Below the pieces are notes generated by a model. It had not been told where the DNA came from and did not search any database. It saw only the letters and a list, made by a program, of their open reading frames with translations. The translations under genes were made by a program, and so were the position numbers. Source: Rhodoflexus caldus (GTDB taxonomy: Bacteria > Bacteroidota > Bacteroidia > Cytophagales > Thermoflexibacteraceae). From it: a stretch of DNA of 64,000 nucleotides. The stretch covers positions 372,001 to 436,000 of the forward strand of contig NZ_JAJPRF010000003.1 in assembly GCF_021206925.1 (NCBI RefSeq), given 5' to 3'. Positions 5,014-64,000 of the stretch are shown here, piece by piece. Numbering within the stretch: position 1 is the first letter of the stretch; each line of letters begins with the position of its first letter.

Positions 5014-7611
5014 ATGAAGCAATTTTTCTATGGCATTTTGTTCACGCTGGTGGCCGGCATTGGACATGTGCAGGCACAGGAACTATCCTATTATCTGCCT
5101 GATTCGGTTAAATACAATTCGGCAATACCAACGCCGGAGTCGGTAATGGGGCATAAGTTTGGTGAGTGGCATATGACTCACGATAAACTGGTTTATTACT
5201 TCCGCGCATTGGCGGCAGCCTCCGACCGCATCAAAGTAGAAGAGTTTGGACGCACGTATGAAGGTCGTCCGCAGTTATTGGTTATTATTTCATCTGCCAA
5301 AAATCAGGGCAACATGGAGAGTCTCCGCCAGCAGCATCTGCAACTTACTGACCCTGCAAAATCGGCTGCTCTGAATCTGGAAAGTATGCCTGTGGTGGTT
5401 TGGATGGCGGCAACTATTCACGGCAACGAACAGAGCGGCGTAGGGGCAATGGTGCTAATGGCCTACCACTTGGCAGCAGCACAAAACGCCCGAGTGGAGG
5501 AAATGCTCGATAAAACCATCATTGTGATGGAGCCTTGCCAAAATCCTGACGGCATGAACCGCTTTTCCACTTGGGTGAATATGCACAAAAGCATTGGCAC
5601 TACCGTATCGGATGCTGCTGCACGGGAATTTAACGAAAATTGGCCCGGTGCCAGAACGAACCATTACTGGTTTGACCTTAACCGCGACTGGCTGCCTGCA
5701 CAACACGTAGAAAGCCGTAACCGTTTGGTGAAATATCACGAGTGGAAGCCTAACGTAGTAGCCGACCAGCACGAAATGGGAACTAATGCCACTTACTTCT
5801 TCATGCCCGGTGAGTCGGCAAGAACCAACCCTATTACACCGCCTGTCAATCAGGAACTGACAGTGAAATTCAGTCGCTACCATGCGGCGTTTATGAACCG
5901 CATTCAATCGCTTTACTACACCCGTGAAGGTTTTGACGATTTCTATTACGGCAAAGGCTCAACTTACCCCGACGGCAATGGAGCAGTGGGTATTTTGTTT
6001 GAGCAGGCAAGTTCCCGAGGACATGCACAAGAGAGTGAAAACGGTATTGTAACCTATCCGTTTACTATTCGCAACCAGTTGGCGACTTGTCTTTCTACTT
6101 GGCAGGCATCTTATGACTTGCGGTTAGATTTGCTGAAAATGCAGCGCGACTTCTATCAGTCGGCTATCCGCGATGCGAACGCTTCAGCCGTTAAAGGCTA
6201 TGTGTTTGGCGATGCTTACGACAAAGGTCGCAACTATCATTTTGTGGAATTACTGCGCCGTCATCAGATAGAAGTTTATGAACTGAAAAACAGTGTGCAA
6301 GCCGGCGGTATCACGTTCCCGCCTGCCACGAGCTATGTAGTACCAACCGCACAGCCTCAATACCGTTTGGTGCGTGCCATTTTTGAAAAAACATTGGGTA
6401 ACTACTACAAAGATAGTCTGTTCTACGATGTTACTACTTGGACAATGCCGCTTGCGTTTGGGTTGCCCTATGCCGAACTGCAAACGCCTGTAACTGCTTT
6501 GCTGGGCAATAAAATTGAGGGAATGCCCCAAATGCCCAAAGGTGAAATGGTTGGCGGCGTGAGCAGCTACGCCTACATTTTTGAATACGATGAATACTAT
6601 GCGCCAAAGGCATTGTATGATATTTTGAACAGGAACATAACGGCGCGAGTGGCTGCACAACCGTTTGAAATAATGCTGGCCAACGGGACTAAGCGCAAAT
6701 TCAACACGGGGGCGGTGATGGTGATGGCAGGTGCTAATCCTCAAATGACACACGACCTGCTGAAAAACATTGCCGAGCAAACAGGTGTAACGGTTTTTGC
6801 CGTCAATACGGGTTTGGCAGACGCAGGCCCTGATTTGGGTGGCCGCTACTTCCAAAAAGTGCGCAAACCTTCCATTTTGTTGTTTGCCGGCCAAGGAACA
6901 AGCAGCTACGATGTAGGCGAAATCTGGCATTTATTTGATAACCGATTCCGTATGCCTGTTTCTGTGGTAGACCTCCGCGATGCTTCACGTGCCAACCTCG
7001 ACCGCTACAATACCATCATTATGGCTAACGGCAGCTATTCGGAAATAGGTCAGGCGTTGCAAGCGCGTCTCAAAAGCTGGGTGCAAAACGGCGGCACGCT
7101 CATTGCCATAGAAGATGCGGTTTCATGGGCAGTACGCAACGGCCTCACCGATGCTGCTTTTAAAACCGAAAAGAAAGATTCCGCACAAGTGAACGTGCCT
7201 TATGCAGGTTTGGAAAGTCTGGCCGGTGCACAACAAATCGGCGGCAGCATTTTTGAAACCCGCTTAGACTTGACCCATCCGTTGGCCTACGGCTACCGCA
7301 ATGCTTCTGTCAGCATATTCAAAAACAACAAACTGTTTTTGAAACGCGGCAACAATTCGGCAGTAAGCCCGCTCAACTACACGGCGAACCCGCTCCAAAG
7401 CGGTTATATCTCTAAGCAAAACTACGAGCAGATTAAAAACAGCGGTGCTGTTCATGTAAGTGCACAAGGCAGAGGCAGGGTTATCAGCATGACGGAAAGC
7501 CCTAATTTCCGTGCTTTCTGGTACGGCGGCACCAAGTTGTTCATGAACAGTGTGTTCTTCGGCAACCTGATTCGCACCTCATTTAGTACCTTTGGTGAAG
7601 AAGAAGACTAA
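5014..7611 (+). CDS. Secreted M14-family zinc carboxypeptidase
   Basis: An 865-residue exported metallopeptidase of the M14 (carboxypeptidase A-like) family. The ATG at 5014 is chosen over the upstream TTG at 4999 because it starts a clean signal peptide (MKQFFYGILFTLVAGIGHVQA, cleaved before QELSYY). Zinc ligands are the HGNEQ pair near residues 136-139 and the His in ADQHEMG near 252; the catalytic Glu is likely in GILFEQASS near 331. Landmarks between them are EPCQNPDGMNRFS and DLNRDW. The remaining 450 residues form C-terminal domains, including a glutamine-amidotransferase-like region (LLFAGQGTSSYDVGEIWHLFD onward) often seen in this Bacteroidota subgroup. It should trim peptides in the periplasm or outside the cell. 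No T9SS sorting tail is seen. Confidence 0.88.
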   Translation: MKQFFYGILFTLVAGIGHVQAQELSYYLPDSVKYNSAIPTPESVMGHKFGEWHMTHDKLVYYFRALAAASDRIKVEEFGRTYEGRPQLLVIISSAKNQGNMESLRQQHLQLTDPAKSAALNLESMPVVVWMAATIHGNEQSGVGAMVLMAYHLAAAQNARVEEMLDKTIIVMEPCQNPDGMNRFSTWVNMHKSIGTTVSDAAAREFNENWPGARTNHYWFDLNRDWLPAQHVESRNRLVKYHEWKPNVVADQHEMGTNATYFFMPGESARTNPITPPVNQELTVKFSRYHAAFMNRIQSLYYTREGFDDFYYGKGSTYPDGNGAVGILFEQASSRGHAQESENGIVTYPFTIRNQLATCLSTWQASYDLRLDLLKMQRDFYQSAIRDANASAVKGYVFGDAYDKGRNYHFVELLRRHQIEVYELKNSVQAGGITFPPATSYVVPTAQPQYRLVRAIFEKTLGNYYKDSLFYDVTTWTMPLAFGLPYAELQTPVTALLGNKIEGMPQMPKGEMVGGVSSYAYIFEYDEYYAPKALYDILNRNITARVAAQPFEIMLANGTKRKFNTGAVMVMAGANPQMTHDLLKNIAEQTGVTVFAVNTGLADAGPDLGGRYFQKVRKPSILLFAGQGTSSYDVGEIWHLFDNRFRMPVSVVDLRDASRANLDRYNTIIMANGSYSEIGQALQARLKSWVQNGGTLIAIEDAVSWAVRNGLTDAAFKTEKKDSAQVNVPYAGLESLAGAQQIGGSIFETRLDLTHPLAYGYRNASVSIFKNNKLFLKRGNNSAVSPLNYTANPLQSGYISKQNYEQIKNSGAVHVSAQGRGRVISMTESPNFRAFWYGGTKLFMNSVFFGNLIRTSFSTFGEEED

Positions 7612-7638
7612 TTTTGCGGCAATCACTTTATTTATTCC

Positions 7639-8079
7639 ATGAAAACAGCAGAAATCCATACCAAATACGGTGTGATGAAGGTGGAATTCTTTGAAAAGGA
7701 TGCCCCCGGAACGGTAGCTAACTTTGTAAAACTGGCAAAATCAGGTTTTTACGACGGGCTTACCTTTCACCGCGTTATCCCCGGCTTTGTTACGCAAGGC
7801 GGATGCCCTAACGGCATTGGCAACGGCGGCCCCGGCTACAAAATCCCTTGCGAACTGGACGGAGACAATCAGTACCACGATACAGGCGTGCTTTCTATGG
7901 CACATGCAGGCCGTAATACAGGCGGTTCCCAGTTCTTTATTTGCCACAATCGCGAAAACACGAAGCACTTAGACCGCAACCATACCGTTTTTGGCAAAGT
8001 GGTGGAAGGTCTGGATATCATCCCTAAAATCAAGCAGGGTGATAAAATGGACAAAATCGTGATTCACGAAGAAGCATAG
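7639..8079 (+). CDS. Cyclophilin-type peptidyl-prolyl cis-trans isomerase
   Basis: A 146-residue single-domain cyclophilin that catalyses cis-trans isomerisation at proline. Conserved blocks are [20 protein letters not shown], the catalytic Arg in [22 protein letters not shown] and [16 protein letters not shown]. No signal peptide is present, so it is cytoplasmic. It lies 27 bases after the carboxypeptidase gene on the same strand and ahead of a strong terminator, so the two may share a transcript. A TAATTTTG element overlaps the carboxypeptidase stop codon and could give it a promoter of its own, but I see no matching -33 element. Confidence 0.95.
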
Positions 8080-8083
8080 TACC

Positions 8084-8128
8084 ACAACACCCGAGGGGTT
8101 TCTAAAACCCTTCGGGTGTTGTATTTTC
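8084..8128 (+). terminator. Rho-independent terminator after the cyclophilin gene
   Basis: A long stem (ACAACACCCGAGGGGTTT pairing with ACCCTTCGGGTGTTGT around a short A-rich loop) starts five bases after the stop codon and ends in TATTTTC. Confidence 0.85.
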
Positions 8129-8163
8129 AATCATTTCCAACCCGGTATTAACCGACTGTAAAT

Positions 8164-10593
8164 ATGAAATACATTAAACTACTGCTTTCGCTGGCCGTAA
8201 CGGCAGCACTCACTTTTGCCCTGAACAGCAAGTTTGGACAAGTCCCTCCTTTGGGCAAGTTCTTAAACCCTTTTGACGGTTTCTGGCAAAATGCACAGAA
8301 CAAAGACCATGTGCAAGGTGCCCCTGCCGATGTCAAACTGGAAGGTTTGAAAGGCAAGGTACAAGTGATTTATGACGACCGCTTAGTGCCGCATATTTTC
8401 GCCGAGAACGAAGAAGACCTGTATTTTATGCAGGGCTATGTAACCGCTCAACATCGCCTTTGGCAAATGGAATTTCAAACCCATGCCGCTGCGGGGCGTG
8501 TATCCGAAATTGTAGGAAAGGCCGCCGTGGACTTTGACCGTGGCAACCGCCGCAAGGGCATGATGTATGGCGCAGAGCGCGCTATCCGCCAAATGGATAC
8601 CCTACCTTTGGCAAAGATGATGCTTACCAACTATACAAAAGGGGTAAACGCATATATTAACAGCCTGAGCATCAAAGATTTGCCGGTAGAGTACAAACTG
8701 CTTGACTACCGCCCCGAAGAGTGGCAGCCCGTAAAAACTGCCTTGCTGCTGAAATACATGGCCAATACGCTGGCTTCGGGAGATGATGCTATTGAAAACA
8801 CAAATGCACTCAAACTGTTGGGGCGTGAAACGTTTGACTTGCTCTTCCCCGATTATCATCCCGAGCAAGCCCCCATTGTGCCTACCGACGGCAAATGGAA
8901 GTTTGAGCCTTTAAAAGTAAATACGCCCAATGTGCAATTCTCCGATAAATTTTACCATGTTATCCCGATGCCCAAAACCGAGCCGGGTGTAGGAAGCAAT
9001 AACTGGGCTGTGGCAGGCAGCAAAACGGCTTCGGGGAATCCTATCCTTTGCGATGACCCGCACCTAACCCTCAGCCTGCCTTCTATCTGGTATGAAATGC
9101 AATTAGTTGCCCCGGGTGTCAATGTATACGGCGTAACGCTTCCGGGAGCGCCCAATATCATTATCGGCTTCAATAATGATGTGGCTTGGGGTGTAACCAA
9201 TGCACAGCGTGATTTAGTGGATTTATATGCGATTCAGTACAAAGACGGTTCGCGCAACGAGTATTTTCTGGACGGCAAATGGGAAAAAACCACCAAGCGC
9301 ATTGAAGAAATCAAAGTGCGCGGCGACAAAACCTACTACGACACAGTGGTTTACACCCACTGGGGGCCTGTTGCTTACGATGAAACCTTCCATCAGGACA
9401 AGCAACATTCCGACCTTGCCATGCGATGGATTGCCCACGACCCTTCGCTGGAACTGCTGACGTTTTACTACCTGAACCGTGCAAAAAACTATCAGGACTA
9501 TGTGCGCGCCCTAACTTACTATGACTGTCCGGCTCAAAATTTTGCCTTTGCAGCCACCAACGGCGACATTGCCATGCATATTCAGGGCAAGTATCCCCTC
9601 AAATGGCGAGAGCAGGGCAAGTTCATTTTAGATGGTACCACAAGCGCCTCCGCTTGGCAAGGATATATTCCCGATGAACAAAATGTACATGTTCTCAATC
9701 CGCAGCGCGGCTATGTAAGCTCTGCCAATCAGCACCCGTCAGATACGCTGTATCCGTATTATGTCCATGCCAATAACTTTGAGTATTACCGCAACAGGCG
9801 TATCAATCATCTGTTGGATTCCATGAAAAACATTACTCCGCAGATGATGATGGACATGCAAAATGACAATTTCAACCTGAAAGCCGCCGAGAGTTTGCCT
9901 TACTTTTTGGCGCAGGTAGATGAGAACAGCCTCAATGCACAGCAAAAGTCGGCCTACCAGCTGTTGAAAAAATGGGATTTTTACAATCATGCCGATGTAG
10001 AAGCCCCAAGCTACTACGAGGCATGGTGGGATAAACTTTTCCCCTTGGTTTGGGATGAACTGCTGGGCAAAGAAATACCCTACAACCGCCCCGATGCGTT
10101 CACTACCATTAAACTGTTGAAAACCAAACCGCAACACCCAATGTTTGACAATAAGAGCACGCCCGATGTAGAAAGTGCAAAGGAAATTATCGCCAAAGCC
10201 TTTCTGCAAGGTGTGGACAGTGTCAATAATTGGAAAAAAGCAAATGACAACAAAATGCCGCTTTGGGCAGACTACAAATCAACTTCTGTACAACATTTGG
10301 CGCGGCTGGCGCCTTTCAGCGTGAATAACGTGCGCAATGGCGGCAATCACAATATCGTCAATGCAACCAGCGAACGGCACGGCCCTTCTTGGCGTATGGT
10401 GGTAGAATTGGACAAAAAAGGTGTGAAAGGATGGGGCGTATATCCCGGCGGGCAGTCGGGCAACCCGGGCAGTCCTTATTATGCCGATATGATGGACACA
10501 TGGCGCGACGGCAAGCACTACGAGCTGTTGTTCATGCAAAGCCCGACACAAACGGCAAAAAACATCCTCTTCCGTCAAACTTTTTCTAACTAA
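8164..10593 (+). CDS. Penicillin acylase family N-terminal nucleophile hydrolase
   Basis: An 809-residue member of the penicillin acylase/amidohydrolase superfamily, enzymes that hydrolyse N-acyl bonds and mature by self-cleavage. An N-terminal hydrophobic segment (residues 4-20) marks export. The self-cleavage site is GVGSNNW, giving Ser278 as predicted nucleophile of the beta chain; the alpha chain would be residues up to about 277. Other family blocks are YGVTLPGAPNIIIGFNNDVAWG and, towards the end, GGNHNIVNAT. Natural substrates of such enzymes include acyl-homoserine lactones and other N-acyl compounds; the one here cannot be read from sequence. It is followed after 17 bases by a small membrane protein gene, probably cotranscribed. 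Confidence 0.92.
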   Translation: MKYIKLLLSLAVTAALTFALNSKFGQVPPLGKFLNPFDGFWQNAQNKDHVQGAPADVKLEGLKGKVQVIYDDRLVPHIFAENEEDLYFMQGYVTAQHRLWQMEFQTHAAAGRVSEIVGKAAVDFDRGNRRKGMMYGAERAIRQMDTLPLAKMMLTNYTKGVNAYINSLSIKDLPVEYKLLDYRPEEWQPVKTALLLKYMANTLASGDDAIENTNALKLLGRETFDLLFPDYHPEQAPIVPTDGKWKFEPLKVNTPNVQFSDKFYHVIPMPKTEPGVGSNNWAVAGSKTASGNPILCDDPHLTLSLPSIWYEMQLVAPGVNVYGVTLPGAPNIIIGFNNDVAWGVTNAQRDLVDLYAIQYKDGSRNEYFLDGKWEKTTKRIEEIKVRGDKTYYDTVVYTHWGPVAYDETFHQDKQHSDLAMRWIAHDPSLELLTFYYLNRAKNYQDYVRALTYYDCPAQNFAFAATNGDIAMHIQGKYPLKWREQGKFILDGTTSASAWQGYIPDEQNVHVLNPQRGYVSSANQHPSDTLYPYYVHANNFEYYRNRRINHLLDSMKNITPQMMMDMQNDNFNLKAAESLPYFLAQVDENSLNAQQKSAYQLLKKWDFYNHADVEAPSYYEAWWDKLFPLVWDELLGKEIPYNRPDAFTTIKLLKTKPQHPMFDNKSTPDVESAKEIIAKAFLQGVDSVNNWKKANDNKMPLWADYKSTSVQHLARLAPFSVNNVRNGGNHNIVNATSERHGPSWRMVVELDKKGVKGWGVYPGGQSGNPGSPYYADMMDTWRDGKHYELLFMQSPTQTAKNILFRQTFSN

Positions 10594-61857: not shown

Positions 61858-61888
61858 AAAGCCATTCTGCATTAGGAATGGCTTTTTT
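61858..61888 (+). terminator. Rho-independent terminator after the PorG-like gene
   Basis: The stem AAAGCCATTC with GAATGGCTTT is followed by further T residues, right after the end of the gene. Confidence 0.9.
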
Positions 61889-61893
61889 GTTGA

Positions 61894-62436
61894 TTATTTC
61901 TTCATGTGGGCTACTATTTTCTTCCGAATGGTAAACAATTGCTTGGCAACTTGCCAAAGCCCGTAAACTAATTTCTGTGCGGTAGCTTTCCCGAAAAAGT
62001 ACAGATAAACGGCTGAGGCAACGGGGGAAAGCAACAGCAGCCATTCTTCCATTAATACGGCTTGATACAGCGGGTATATGTTGGCTGCACCCACAATGCC
62101 TTTCAGGCTGTTTTCCCAAAACGTGGTTTGTTTCTCAAAAGCATTTAAAAATGCAGTGGTTTTTTCAAAGTGCAGGTTAATATGCTCTTTGTAGTGATTG
62201 TGCCAGTCGGCAGGGTCATACTGCTCCTGTGCCGGATTAGGTATGAAATTGATGACATCGCCAAACCCAATGACAGTGCGCAGCATGAAGGTATTGCCCT
62301 GATAGGTAAAAGGTGTTTCTATGCTATGTCCGCCTTCTTTCAGCAAATTGCGGGCAAACCGAAGCGCACGAACAGGTTTTTGCAGCCATTCCGTGGTGTT
62401 TTTCCATAATTGAGAAAGGTTGCGTTCAGCAGGCAT
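61894..62436 (-). CDS. Hypothetical protein with C-terminal membrane segment (right-edge cluster)
   Basis: A 180-residue protein I do not recognise. The ATG at 62434-62436 overlaps the TGA of the upstream gene (TGATG), which points to translational coupling; a GTG one codon upstream is possible. The N-terminal two-thirds look soluble (FARNLLKEGGHSIETPFTYQ, DWHNHYKEHINLHFEKTTAFLNAFEKQ). A hydrophobic stretch near residues 130-152 (EEWLLLLSPVASAVYLYFFG) may be a membrane helix, and a basic tail (RKKIVAHMKK) ends it. Function unknown. Confidence 0.7.
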   Translation of the reverse strand: MPAERNLSQLWKNTTEWLQKPVRALRFARNLLKEGGHSIETPFTYQGNTFMLRTVIGFGDVINFIPNPAQEQYDPADWHNHYKEHINLHFEKTTAFLNAFEKQTTFWENSLKGIVGAANIYPLYQAVLMEEWLLLLSPVASAVYLYFFGKATAQKLVYGLWQVAKQLFTIRKKIVAHMKK

Positions 62437-63326
62437 CACTTCTTACTGAAAATTTGATTGAACGATTTTCCGGCTAAGTTGATAACGGTAGTGAACAGCG
62501 TATTCCAAAACTGTGTGGAGGTGTTAATGGAGCGGTTATGCACGCCCATGATAATTTCCTTGATTTGCTCGGGCATGTTGATATACTGCGGCGTAATGTA
62601 TGAGGTAACATCGCCTTCTACCTGAATAACGGTTTGCAGCACAATTTGCTCGGTACCTATCTCATAGGCTTTGTAAATCATACCCAGCATATCGGGCAGA
62701 AACGGCAGCTCAACGGCGCTGTTCATATGTCCCCAGTCCAAATCGTTGTTCCAAAGCGCGGTTTCCTGATGCGAGCGGAACGGCACGCATGACAGCGGCA
62801 ACTCGCGGCGTTGATAACGCAAATAATTGAAATGCTCTTTATCTACGTAATAGATTTGCTTGTCTTCATCCTCGTGCTCGTTGCTTTGGGTGAGCGTATC
62901 AGGGGCAAGGTCGCGGCGGAACAGTTTAAATATCCCAATCACATTATAGCTCTGATTGCTAATCCGCTGCAAAATTTTATGACGACTGTTCAGCGTGTTC
63001 AGCTTGGCAGGGTCTGTTTCTTTCTGCATCAGTTCTTCCATCAGTTTCACGCCGCGCCCCGATTGGAGCGCCAATTCTTTAAAAGAAAACTCGCCGCCAA
63101 ACTGCCATCGCAATACCTTGCCTGCATCTTCTGCCGTGATATCGGGGTCATTGGGCGACTTGACAAGCCCGTAGTCAATCAGCGTTTCCCGATAAATATC
63201 TGCCAGCTTGCGCAATAGTACCCGCTTGTTGCCGGGTATTTTTTCGGCAGACATATTTTGCTTAATAATAGTGTTGATTTCTAACCGCAACAGGTCAGAA
63301 GCAAGGTTTTTAATAAAATCACTCAT
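62436..63326 (-). CDS. Hypothetical protein (right-edge cluster)
   Basis: A 296-residue soluble protein with no signal peptide and no family I can name. The N-terminal 60 residues are helical and basic (DLLRLEINTIIKQNMSAEKI, NKRVLLRKLADIYRETLIDYG). The centre holds VLRWQFGGEFSFKELALQSG and a charged NEHEDEDKQIYYVDKEH; the end has VEGDVTSYITPQYINMPEQ and a C-terminal helix FWNTLFTTVINLAGKSFNQIF. Its stop overlaps the next start. It belongs to a same-strand set of at least four genes. Confidence 0.7.
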   Translation of the reverse strand: MSDFIKNLASDLLRLEINTIIKQNMSAEKIPGNKRVLLRKLADIYRETLIDYGLVKSPNDPDITAEDAGKVLRWQFGGEFSFKELALQSGRGVKLMEELMQKETDPAKLNTLNSRHKILQRISNQSYNVIGIFKLFRRDLAPDTLTQSNEHEDEDKQIYYVDKEHFNYLRYQRRELPLSCVPFRSHQETALWNNDLDWGHMNSAVELPFLPDMLGMIYKAYEIGTEQIVLQTVIQVEGDVTSYITPQYINMPEQIKEIIMGVHNRSINTSTQFWNTLFTTVINLAGKSFNQIFSKK

Positions 63327-63356
63327 TGAGCTTAGGTTATTAGCCGATGCAAAAAA

Positions 63357-63878
63357 TTATTGAGCGTCTTCGTTGGGGTTGATAACAAACCCGGGGTTGT
63401 TGTCTGTAACAATTTCGTTGGAAAAACTGCTGCTCAAAGCAGTAAAACTGTCATTGGCGGCCGACAGACTGCTGCTGCTCATATCGGGTTGGGTAATATT
63501 GCTGCCGCCATAGGCCGGAGGCGGCAAATTGATATTAAGCGGCGCATTGCCTTGCAACTGTTGGTACATGTTTACCAATGAAAGAATTGTAGCAATATTG
63601 TTCTGAATGACCTGATAGCCGTGCGCTTCTTTCTCTTTGTGGAATTGTCGCACCCAGTCATAGCGCGAGGTGGTCAGTTCCTGACTCATGCGCACGGTGA
63701 TATCGCCCATGAGCATATTGATGCGGCTTTCCAGAATGAGGTATTCACCGCCTGCGGGCTGTACGTTTTCCTTGCTGTCGAGCTTAAAATCGCCGACAAT
63801 GGTTTTGATATCGAGCGTGGTCATGCGCGAAAGGCTGTCTTTGATGCGCTCCAAAAAACTGTTGAATTGGGAGTCCAT
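63357..63878 (-). CDS. Hypothetical protein with low-complexity C-terminus (right-edge cluster)
   Basis: A 173-residue soluble protein. Residues 1-110 are helical and compact (FNSFLERIKDSLSRMTTLDI, MGDITVRMSQELTTSRYDW, VIQNNIATILSLVNMYQQLQ). The last 60 are Pro/Ser/Asn-rich and probably disordered (NLPPPAYGGSN, DMSSSSLSAANDS). It ends 30 bases before the preceding cluster gene begins. No family recognised and no catalytic motif seen. Confidence 0.7.
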   Translation of the reverse strand: MDSQFNSFLERIKDSLSRMTTLDIKTIVGDFKLDSKENVQPAGGEYLILESRINMLMGDITVRMSQELTTSRYDWVRQFHKEKEAHGYQVIQNNIATILSLVNMYQQLQGNAPLNINLPPPAYGGSNITQPDMSSSSLSAANDSFTALSSSFSNEIVTDNNPGFVINPNEDAQ

Positions 63879-63912
63879 GTTGTTCTGATTTTGAATTGGT
63901 AAGACAAGTTAA

Positions 63913-64000
63913 TTAAAAATTTGTAAGCGGCTGCTTTTGTGCATAATCTGCCAGCAATTGTACAATGCCTGCCATATCGGTGTGTCCGCTTTCGTTCTCA
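63913..64000 (-). CDS. C-terminal end of a further right-edge cluster gene (partial, start outside window)
   Basis: An open minus-strand frame enters from the window edge and ends at a TAA (63913-63915). It encodes 28 visible residues, ENESGHTDMAGIVQLLADYA followed by QKQPLTNF. It lies 34 bases upstream of the next cluster gene on the same strand. Too short to assign. Confidence 0.6.
   Translation of the reverse strand, partial: ENESGHTDMAGIVQLLADYAQKQPLTNF

What the first reader, a model, noticed from the sequence alone, without database searches (positions are those of the whole stretch)
61894..64000. Four consecutive minus-strand genes without recognisable family at the right edge
Three complete genes and the tail of a fourth are packed closely (gaps of 34 and 30 bases, then a TGATG overlap). 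None shows a motif I can assign. One ends in a likely membrane helix, one in a disordered Ser/Pro/Asn tail, and one is basic at its start. Such tight coupling suggests one complex or pathway. The opposite neighbour (PorG-like) is separated by a strong terminator, so this is a distinct unit. It is the best candidate in the window for an undescribed system, though the evidence is only the absence of known families.
Basis: partly seen in the sequence, partly recalled or inferred. Interest (0 to 1): 0.6.

Follow-up and report, generated by a model that had tools for sequence, protein, structure and literature searches.

The report
Unnamed conserved three-gene unit
Three unnamed neighbouring genes at the edge of this window belong to a scattered but repeatedly found set in several bacterial phyla; each makes a different version of the same small protein domain and one probably sits in the membrane, so they look like an undescribed molecular machine whose job is not yet known.

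Summary
The three complete minus-strand genes (A 63357-63878, B 62436-63326, C 61894-62439) are real and match no family above chance in Pfam, PHROGs, NCBIfam or PADLOC, nor any solved-structure sequence. The fourth gene does have a family: it is the tail of a FecE-like ABC ATPase. In 148 genomes of the order, A and B occur in exactly the same 28; C, by profile, in 27 of these. In six of the 28 the genes lie on different contigs yet are all present. In 44 loci from a public genome set (Cytophagales, Bacteroidales, Thiotrichales, Desulfobacterales, anammox planctomycetes, others) A adjoins B in 39, C adjoins B in 32, both in 29. Profile comparison shows A-B and B-C are distant relatives (E 1e-7, 4e-7); models give each the order helix-three strands-helix, with a helical insert in B, and a nearly invariant Asp and His. 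C carries the hydrophobic helices. A joint A+B prediction scores as if the two pack together. Best reading: a hetero-oligomer of three paralogous subunits, A and B cytoplasmic, C the membrane anchor. The cellular role is unknown; a scaffold or gate at the inner membrane is my guess. YbaB membership, PADLOC families and phage linkage (A and B only) were tested and not supported.

The parts
63357..63878 (-). gene A, 173 aa: helix-three strands-helix domain (residues 2-108) plus disordered Ser/Pro/Asn tail
   Evidence: ORF; relatives in 28 of 148 order genomes; model md73a91f995c6
62436..63326 (-). gene B, 296 aa: same domain with a helical insert of roughly 200 residues between strand 1 and strand 2
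   Evidence: ORF; relatives in 28 of 148 order genomes; hhalign to A E 1e-7; model
61894..62439 (-). gene C, 180-181 aa: same domain followed by hydrophobic helices and a basic C-terminus
   Evidence: ORF; profile match in 27 of the 28 A+B genomes; hhalign to B E 4e-7; model m5de5fbeb020f
63696..63722 (-). GD motif of A (residues 53-61, INMLMGDIT); its conserved His80 is at 63639-63641
   Evidence: D59 and H80 in 38 of 38 rows
62592..62636 (-). GD motif of B (residues 231-245, QTVIQVEGDVTSYIT); its conserved His263 is at 62538-62540
   Evidence: D239 and H263 in 30 of 31 rows, the other row has a gap
62239..62277 (-). GD motif of C (residues 54-66 counted from the ATG at 62436, TVIGFGDVINFIP); its conserved His89 is at 62170-62172
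   Evidence: D in 34 of 36, H in 36 of 36 rows
63913..64000 (-). 3' end of a FecE-like ABC ATPase gene (346 aa; the rest lies outside the window, L002:3914-4954)
61858..61885 (.). terminator-like hairpin between C and the DUF6089 gene
   Evidence: L002:1859-1886; a consensus match only

Best explanation
A, B and C are three diverged copies of one small domain (helix, three-stranded sheet, long helix, with a Gly-Asp turn and a His on the following helix). They most likely assemble into one hetero-oligomer: A and B are soluble cytoplasmic subunits that pack on each other, and C holds the assembly at the inner face of the cytoplasmic membrane through its hydrophobic C-terminal helices. Shown here: the genes, their co-occurrence and order, the shared ancestry of A-B and B-C, the Asp/His signature, hydrophobic helices confined to C. 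Predicted: the secondary-structure order and the A-B contact. Inferred: that C joins A-B, and that the complex works as a membrane scaffold or gate, with the Asp-His pair shaping each subunit's turn or binding a ligand. The cellular process is not identified.
For: A and B occur in the identical 28 of 148 order genomes; C, by profile, in 27 of those 28 plus two marginal partial hits elsewhere. Of 44 genome-contig loci A lies before B on the same strand in 39, C after B in 32 (E < 1e-3), both in 29, within 600 bases; median gaps 12 and 3.5 bases, largest 423. Where not adjacent they are mostly still present: A on another contig for L110, L112, L117, L121; C elsewhere in the genome for L110, L118, L119, L123, L126, L133 (in which 17 of the 44 loci's genomes were searched). 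Shared ancestry: A-B prob 94 E 1e-7, B-C prob 93 E 4e-7. Models: C pLDDT 85.8, pTM 0.62; A+B read as one chain pLDDT 81.1, pTM 0.79. B is 296 of the 480 residues, so pTM would stay near 0.62-0.65 if A were not placed relative to B (my arithmetic). TM-like windows: C 26 of 36, A 2 of 38, B 0 of 31; last 20 residues of C net positive in 36 of 36. Asp and His nearly invariant in all three families. Purifying selection against L099.
Against: A and C are linked only through B: direct comparison is weak (prob 12, E 0.002). No complex with C was predicted, and no coordinates or error map were available, so contacts are not seen. The linker in the A+B chain may favour contact. The window's own C does not reach the hydropathy threshold (1.50), nor do 9 of the other 35 rows. 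C was not recognised for L127 (a 1.1-Mb assembly), L131 and L141, although an ORF stands in its place in the last two. The ORF in C's place in Azospirillum (not in the alignment) has the GD but no His at the expected spot. No significant fold match of any kind.
Confidence: 0.5

Rival explanations
1. A defence or self-killing module: C is a membrane-disrupting effector held inactive by A and B, which sense infection.
For: Patchy distribution across phyla (28 of 148 order genomes; 3 of 395 in a phylum sample, the window's own genome included; 5 of 62 in the order of a Brocadia genome; 10 of 42 in the order of a Thiotrichales genome); a small hydrophobic component; C diverges fastest.
Against: No PADLOC match for A, B or C of the window or L130; no relatives of A or B in viral contigs or of B in phage records; the genes are unlinked yet retained together in several genomes, which a mobile cassette would not predict; lineage-wise groups in the tree of B. 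The neighbourhoods were not scanned for defence genes.
Confidence: 0.15
2. A cell-wall or lysis device: the complex controls access of a peptidoglycan hydrolase.
For: Four loci have a CHAP/PG_binding_1-type gene upstream: L137 (CHAP E 2.8e-8, PG_binding_1 E 1.9e-14), L138 and L090 (PG_binding_1), L139 (by similarity to these). In L137, L138 and L090 an A-like gene and a 540-aa protein lie in between. L141 has a weaker relative (PG_binding_1 E 4.9e-5) about 3.4 kb downstream.
Against: The clustering joins no such gene next to the trio in the other loci, and none lies beside the window trio; L083 and L131 have the 540-aa gene without the hydrolase next to it; the 540-aa protein has no peptidoglycan-binding match. 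Only selected neighbours were scanned with Pfam.
Confidence: 0.12
3. A DNA-organising or segregation factor: helix-three strands-helix is the topology of YbaB/EbfC, and in Azospirillum the trio follows parA and parB.
For: Topology; YbaB entries 1j8b and 1pug among the VIA rows for C, Z 4.2 each; ParA-ParB-A-B-C order in 3 of 3 Azospirillum records read, of 7 found; a ParA-like ORF about 1 kb downstream of C in the Brocadia locus L130 (E 2.5e-7).
Against: No profile similarity of A, B or C to YbaB (prob < 1); Z 4.2 is background level by the tool's own note; in loci L079-L142 no ParB was found and only two ParA-like ORFs (L130; L082, partial, E 1.3e-5); A is mostly acidic (median pI 4.9, range 4.2-9.2); C is hydrophobic.
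Confidence: 0.08

Closest known systems
YbaB/EbfC nucleoid-associated family (PF02575)
   Same: predicted order helix-three strands-helix; 1j8b and 1pug appear in the VIA list for C at Z 4.2
   Different: no profile similarity; the His is missing from the YbaB consensus; C has hydrophobic helices; the genome has its own true YbaB elsewhere (G000 contig 5)
Enlarged unit found here in Bacteroidales (L137, L138), Carboxylicivirga (L131) and two genomes of the window's order (L083, L090)
   Same: contains A and B, and a C-like gene after B where the contig reaches that far; the 540-aa protein's end resembles C's domain (prob 43, E 2.4e-4), though not B's (prob 0.7)
   Different: adds an A-like gene and a 540-aa protein, and in L137, L138 and L090 a peptidoglycan-hydrolase-like gene; the added A-like and 540-aa proteins are unnamed too
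Tripartite alpha-pore-forming toxins (recalled, not searched)
   Same: three related proteins from one operon, at least one membrane-active (recalled)
   Different: those are secreted long helical proteins (recalled); B has no and A hardly any hydrophobic segment

Membership tests
YbaB/EbfC (PF02575) | profile similarity over the about 90-residue domain | tested here: not met
   hhalign of A, B and C alignments against 25 YbaB sequences of the order: prob 0.6, 0.2, 0.2
YbaB/EbfC (PF02575) | alpha-beta-beta-beta-alpha fold | tested here: inconclusive
   same element order in the models; VIA Z 4.2 (rmsd 9.7 over 89 residues for 1j8b; 4.9 over 72 for 1pug), background level
known anti-phage defence system (PADLOC) | a component matches a PADLOC model | tested here: not met
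   no match for A, B, C of the window or of L130 at E <= 1; the C-like protein of L137 has LeoBC at E 0.0056, 13.8 bits
phage or prophage gene cassette | relatives in phage genomes or viral contigs | tested here: not met
   none in viral contigs (B; A) or phage records (B); C was not used as a query
ParABS partition accessory | constant linkage to parA/parB | tested here: not met
   linked in Azospirillum; in loci L079-L142 no ParB, and one ParA-like ORF near the trio (L130, about 1 kb after C)
lysis cassette with peptidoglycan hydrolase | hydrolase gene in the unit | tested here: not met
   found beside A-B only in L137, L138, L139, L090; the window trio's neighbours are the ABC ATPase and DUF6089
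tripartite alpha-pore-forming toxin | long helical bundle with a hydrophobic hairpin head | not tested
   recalled comparison; no search against that family was made beyond the general Pfam scan
ABC transporter operon | permease or binding protein among A-C | tested here: not met
   no Pfam or NCBIfam transporter match for A, B, C

The most novel reading that the evidence does not exclude
A, B and C define an undescribed bacterial superfamily (a GD-His helix-sheet-helix domain) that forms an obligate three-paralog, membrane-anchored machine, kept for a long time in parts of Cytophagales, Thiotrichales, Desulfobacterales, anammox bacteria and Azospirillum, with an enlarged version in Bacteroidales and a few relatives that has recruited a peptidoglycan hydrolase.
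Probability: 0.45. Interest if true: 0.7.

Novelty: categorically new. Interest (0 to 1): 0.55.

Why it matters
A three-gene unit whose subunits are diverged copies of one domain, found together in nearly every genome examined that has B, even where the genes are scattered, looks like a genuine hetero-oligomeric machine. It is unnamed in Pfam, NCBIfam, PHROGs and PADLOC, and occurs in hard-to-study groups (Thiomargarita, Beggiatoa, anammox bacteria) as well as in Azospirillum brasilense, which can be cultured and manipulated (recalled), so its function can be tested.

Tried and rejected
Single-sequence profile searches gave only chance-level matches: Pneumo_ncap E 0.15 for A; phrog_30220 E 0.014 and phrog_33084 E 0.2 for B, phrog_25758 E 0.11 for A; SsaE chaperone E 0.0013, 19 of 129 bits, for C, MoaA E 0.0025, 17 of 325 bits, for the A-like protein of L137, PepO E 0.15 for C of L130; LeoBC E 0.0056 for the C-like protein of L137. 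Profile searches of solved-structure sequences: best E 0.27 (B), 0.99 (A), 0.52 (C), 0.025 (540-aa protein).

Fold searches: Foldseek against PDB for C and for A+B, and against BFVD for A+B, had no match at E <= 0.001. VIA rows were mostly long helices and BAR-type bundles at Z <= 6.0. No library of predicted cellular proteins was available, and the shared domain was not folded alone, so a fold match is not excluded.

Considered and dropped: YbaB membership; ParABS accessory; a peptidoglycan-binding domain in the 540-aa protein, which I saw by eye but which no profile supports; tape-measure matches of that protein (phrog_167, three of five members, best E 3e-5), which I read as composition of amphipathic helices, without a test.

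Literature: no paper found that describes the unit. Searches: topic words; host names; Azospirillum locus tags. I looked for the Azospirillum tags in PMC6159551, PMC12826043 and PMC11837500 by term search of the main text only (occurrences); of the other listed papers I saw the listing and abstract starts only. The held library lacks most subscription papers and holds no preprints.

Full report
What is there. Comparison with L099 gives dN/dS of 0.10 (A), 0.05 (B) and 0.19 (C), as expected of working genes. The window lies in a 3.96-Mb genome. Reading past its edge shows that the fourth gene is a 346-aa FecE-like ABC ATPase, so the claim of four unassignable genes falls to three.

No known family. 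A, B and C had no match above chance in Pfam, PHROGs, NCBIfam, PADLOC, or, as family profiles, among the sequences of solved structures.

Conservation. Single-sequence searches of 148 genomes of the order found B in 28 and A in 28, and the two lists are identical. C is more divergent: one sequence finds 17; a profile finds 29, of which 27 are among the 28 and two are marginal partial hits. In the one miss, G044, the contig ends just after B. A scan of a public genome set with a B profile returned 44 loci: Cytophagales with five Flammeovirga, Bacteroidales and Carboxylicivirga, Thiotrichales including Beggiatoa, Thiomargarita and Venteria, Desulfobacterales, anammox planctomycetes, and others. 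Among these 44, A stands before B on the same strand in 39, C after B in 32 (E < 1e-3), both in 29, within 600 bases, with median gaps of 12 and 3.5 bases. The scan used patterns from the window's order, so its reach outside is a lower bound. tblastn found B also on 7 Azospirillum megaplasmids.

Together even when apart. In four of the five loci without a neighbouring A (L110, L112, L117, L121) A lies on another contig of the same genome (contigs matched by length); the fifth, L141, has a weak A-like ORF in place (E 2e-4). Twelve loci lacked a neighbouring C in the first profile search. The genomes of eleven of them were searched again with an enlarged profile (17 genomes in all): C is elsewhere in the genome for L110, L118, L119, L123, L126 and L133 (for L133 I did not match the two contigs), adjacent after all in L137 and L140, and not found for L127, L131 and L141. 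The twelfth, L138, has an adjacent ORF similar to that of L137. In six of the 28 order genomes (G001, G018, G068, G093, G109, G134) the three genes do not share one contig, and in G018 each is on its own. Retention without linkage suggests that the proteins need each other.

Distribution. The trio is accessory: 28 of 148 in the order, 3 of 395 in an even phylum sample including the window's own genome, 5 of 62 in the order of a Brocadia genome, 10 of 42 in the order of a Thiotrichales genome. A tree of B from 31 rows (the window, 29 of the 44 loci and one Azospirillum) groups six Thiotrichales (100/99), three Brocadiaceae (100/99) and eight Cytophagales-type rows (100/99), with nine label changes over five phyla against 15.7 when shuffled. 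The second anammox lineage (L113) does not join Brocadiaceae, and long branches make the deeper order unsure.

Three copies of one domain. hhalign of enlarged alignments joins A to B (prob 94, E 1e-7) and B to C (prob 93, E 4e-7); A to C directly is weak (prob 12). Smaller alignments gave the same picture (prob 80 for A-B, 7 for A-C, 84 for B-C). A YbaB alignment as control gave prob below 1. The common core is a strand ending in Gly-Asp, then a helix with a His: Asp and His are present in 38 of 38 A rows (two of them A-like extra genes), 30 of 31 B rows (one gap), and in 34 and 36 of 36 C rows. The ORF in C's place in Azospirillum, which is not among those rows, has the GD but no matching His. 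The models agree on the order of elements: A is H2-19, E21-33, E39-54, E59-65, H71-108; C is H3-34, E37-45, E48-56, E61-64, H75-118 and further helices; B has H182-195 and E198-206, a helical insert, then E412-419, E424-428 and H437-478 (numbers of the A+B chain).

Assembly. The A+B chain, predicted from 65 rows of which 17 hold both proteins, has pTM 0.79. B is 62% of its length and 57 residues in a row have pLDDT below 50, so by my arithmetic A must be placed with some confidence relative to B. No coordinates were available to inspect the contact. C is the membrane component: TM-like windows in 26 of 36 C, 2 of 38 A and 0 of 31 B. Two hydrophobic stretches follow the domain (30 and 31 of 36 rows), the last 20 residues are net positive in 36 of 36, and the N-terminal part in 27 of 36; by the positive-inside rule this suggests that both ends face the cytoplasm. 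The window's own C is borderline (1.50).

An enlarged version. In L137, L138 and L090 the order is PG_binding_1 gene (with CHAP in L137, the one scanned for it), A-like gene, 540-aa protein, A, B, and a C-like gene after B in L137 and L138 (L090's contig ends there); L139 has the hydrolase-like gene but no 540-aa gene; L083 and L131 have the 540-aa gene without the hydrolase beside it. The 540-aa protein ends in a C-like domain (prob 43, E 2.4e-4; not with B).

Judgement. I think a membrane-anchored hetero-oligomer of paralogous subunits is the best reading (0.5); scaffold or gate is a guess about role. Defence, lysis and segregation were each considered and have specific evidence against them.

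Noticed in passing
L180, L181, L182 (Azospirillum megaplasmids), about 6400-10470: The trio sits directly behind parA (AAA_31) and parB genes (Pfam tested in L180) in the three records read of seven found; it is annotated only as hypothetical proteins.
   Followed up: partly
L137:4443-8667, L138:452-4658, L090:306-4230, L083:5601-8915, L131:5544-9294: Enlarged unit with an unnamed 540-aa protein (amphipathic helices, C-like end) and an A-like gene; L137, L138 and L090 add a PG_binding_1 gene. In L131 a chemotaxis-receptor-like gene (HAMP, MCPsignal) precedes it.
   Followed up: partly
L002:3914-6068 (just right of the window): Upstream of A lie a FecE-like ABC ATPase whose ATPase match ends about 100 residues before its C-terminus, and a 354-aa protein matching only a coiled-coil family (CCCAP, E 8.5e-8); the pair precedes the trio in L099, L100, L101 and L136.
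   Followed up: partly
L002:10990-16194: Four similar-looking genes beside rpoB; the two scanned match Porph_ging (PF09697).
   Followed up: no
L103, L104 (MAGs titled Thalassobius and Thalassovita): L104's B groups with Flammeovirga (97/85 in the tree) and L103's A resembles L104's, so these contigs may be misbinned Bacteroidota.
   Followed up: no
loci: Many named carriers are large, filamentous or gliding bacteria (Beggiatoa, Thiomargarita, Venteria, Flammeovirga, Flexibacter; their habits recalled); anammox bacteria and Azospirillum are exceptions. Not tested.
   Followed up: no
L082 and L083:7300-8915 (genome G049): This genome holds a typical trio (L082) and a second, divergent one of the enlarged type (L083).
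   Followed up: partly
L130:10171-10944: A ParA-like ORF (E 2.5e-7 to the Azospirillum ParA) about 1 kb downstream of C in a Brocadia locus.
   Followed up: no
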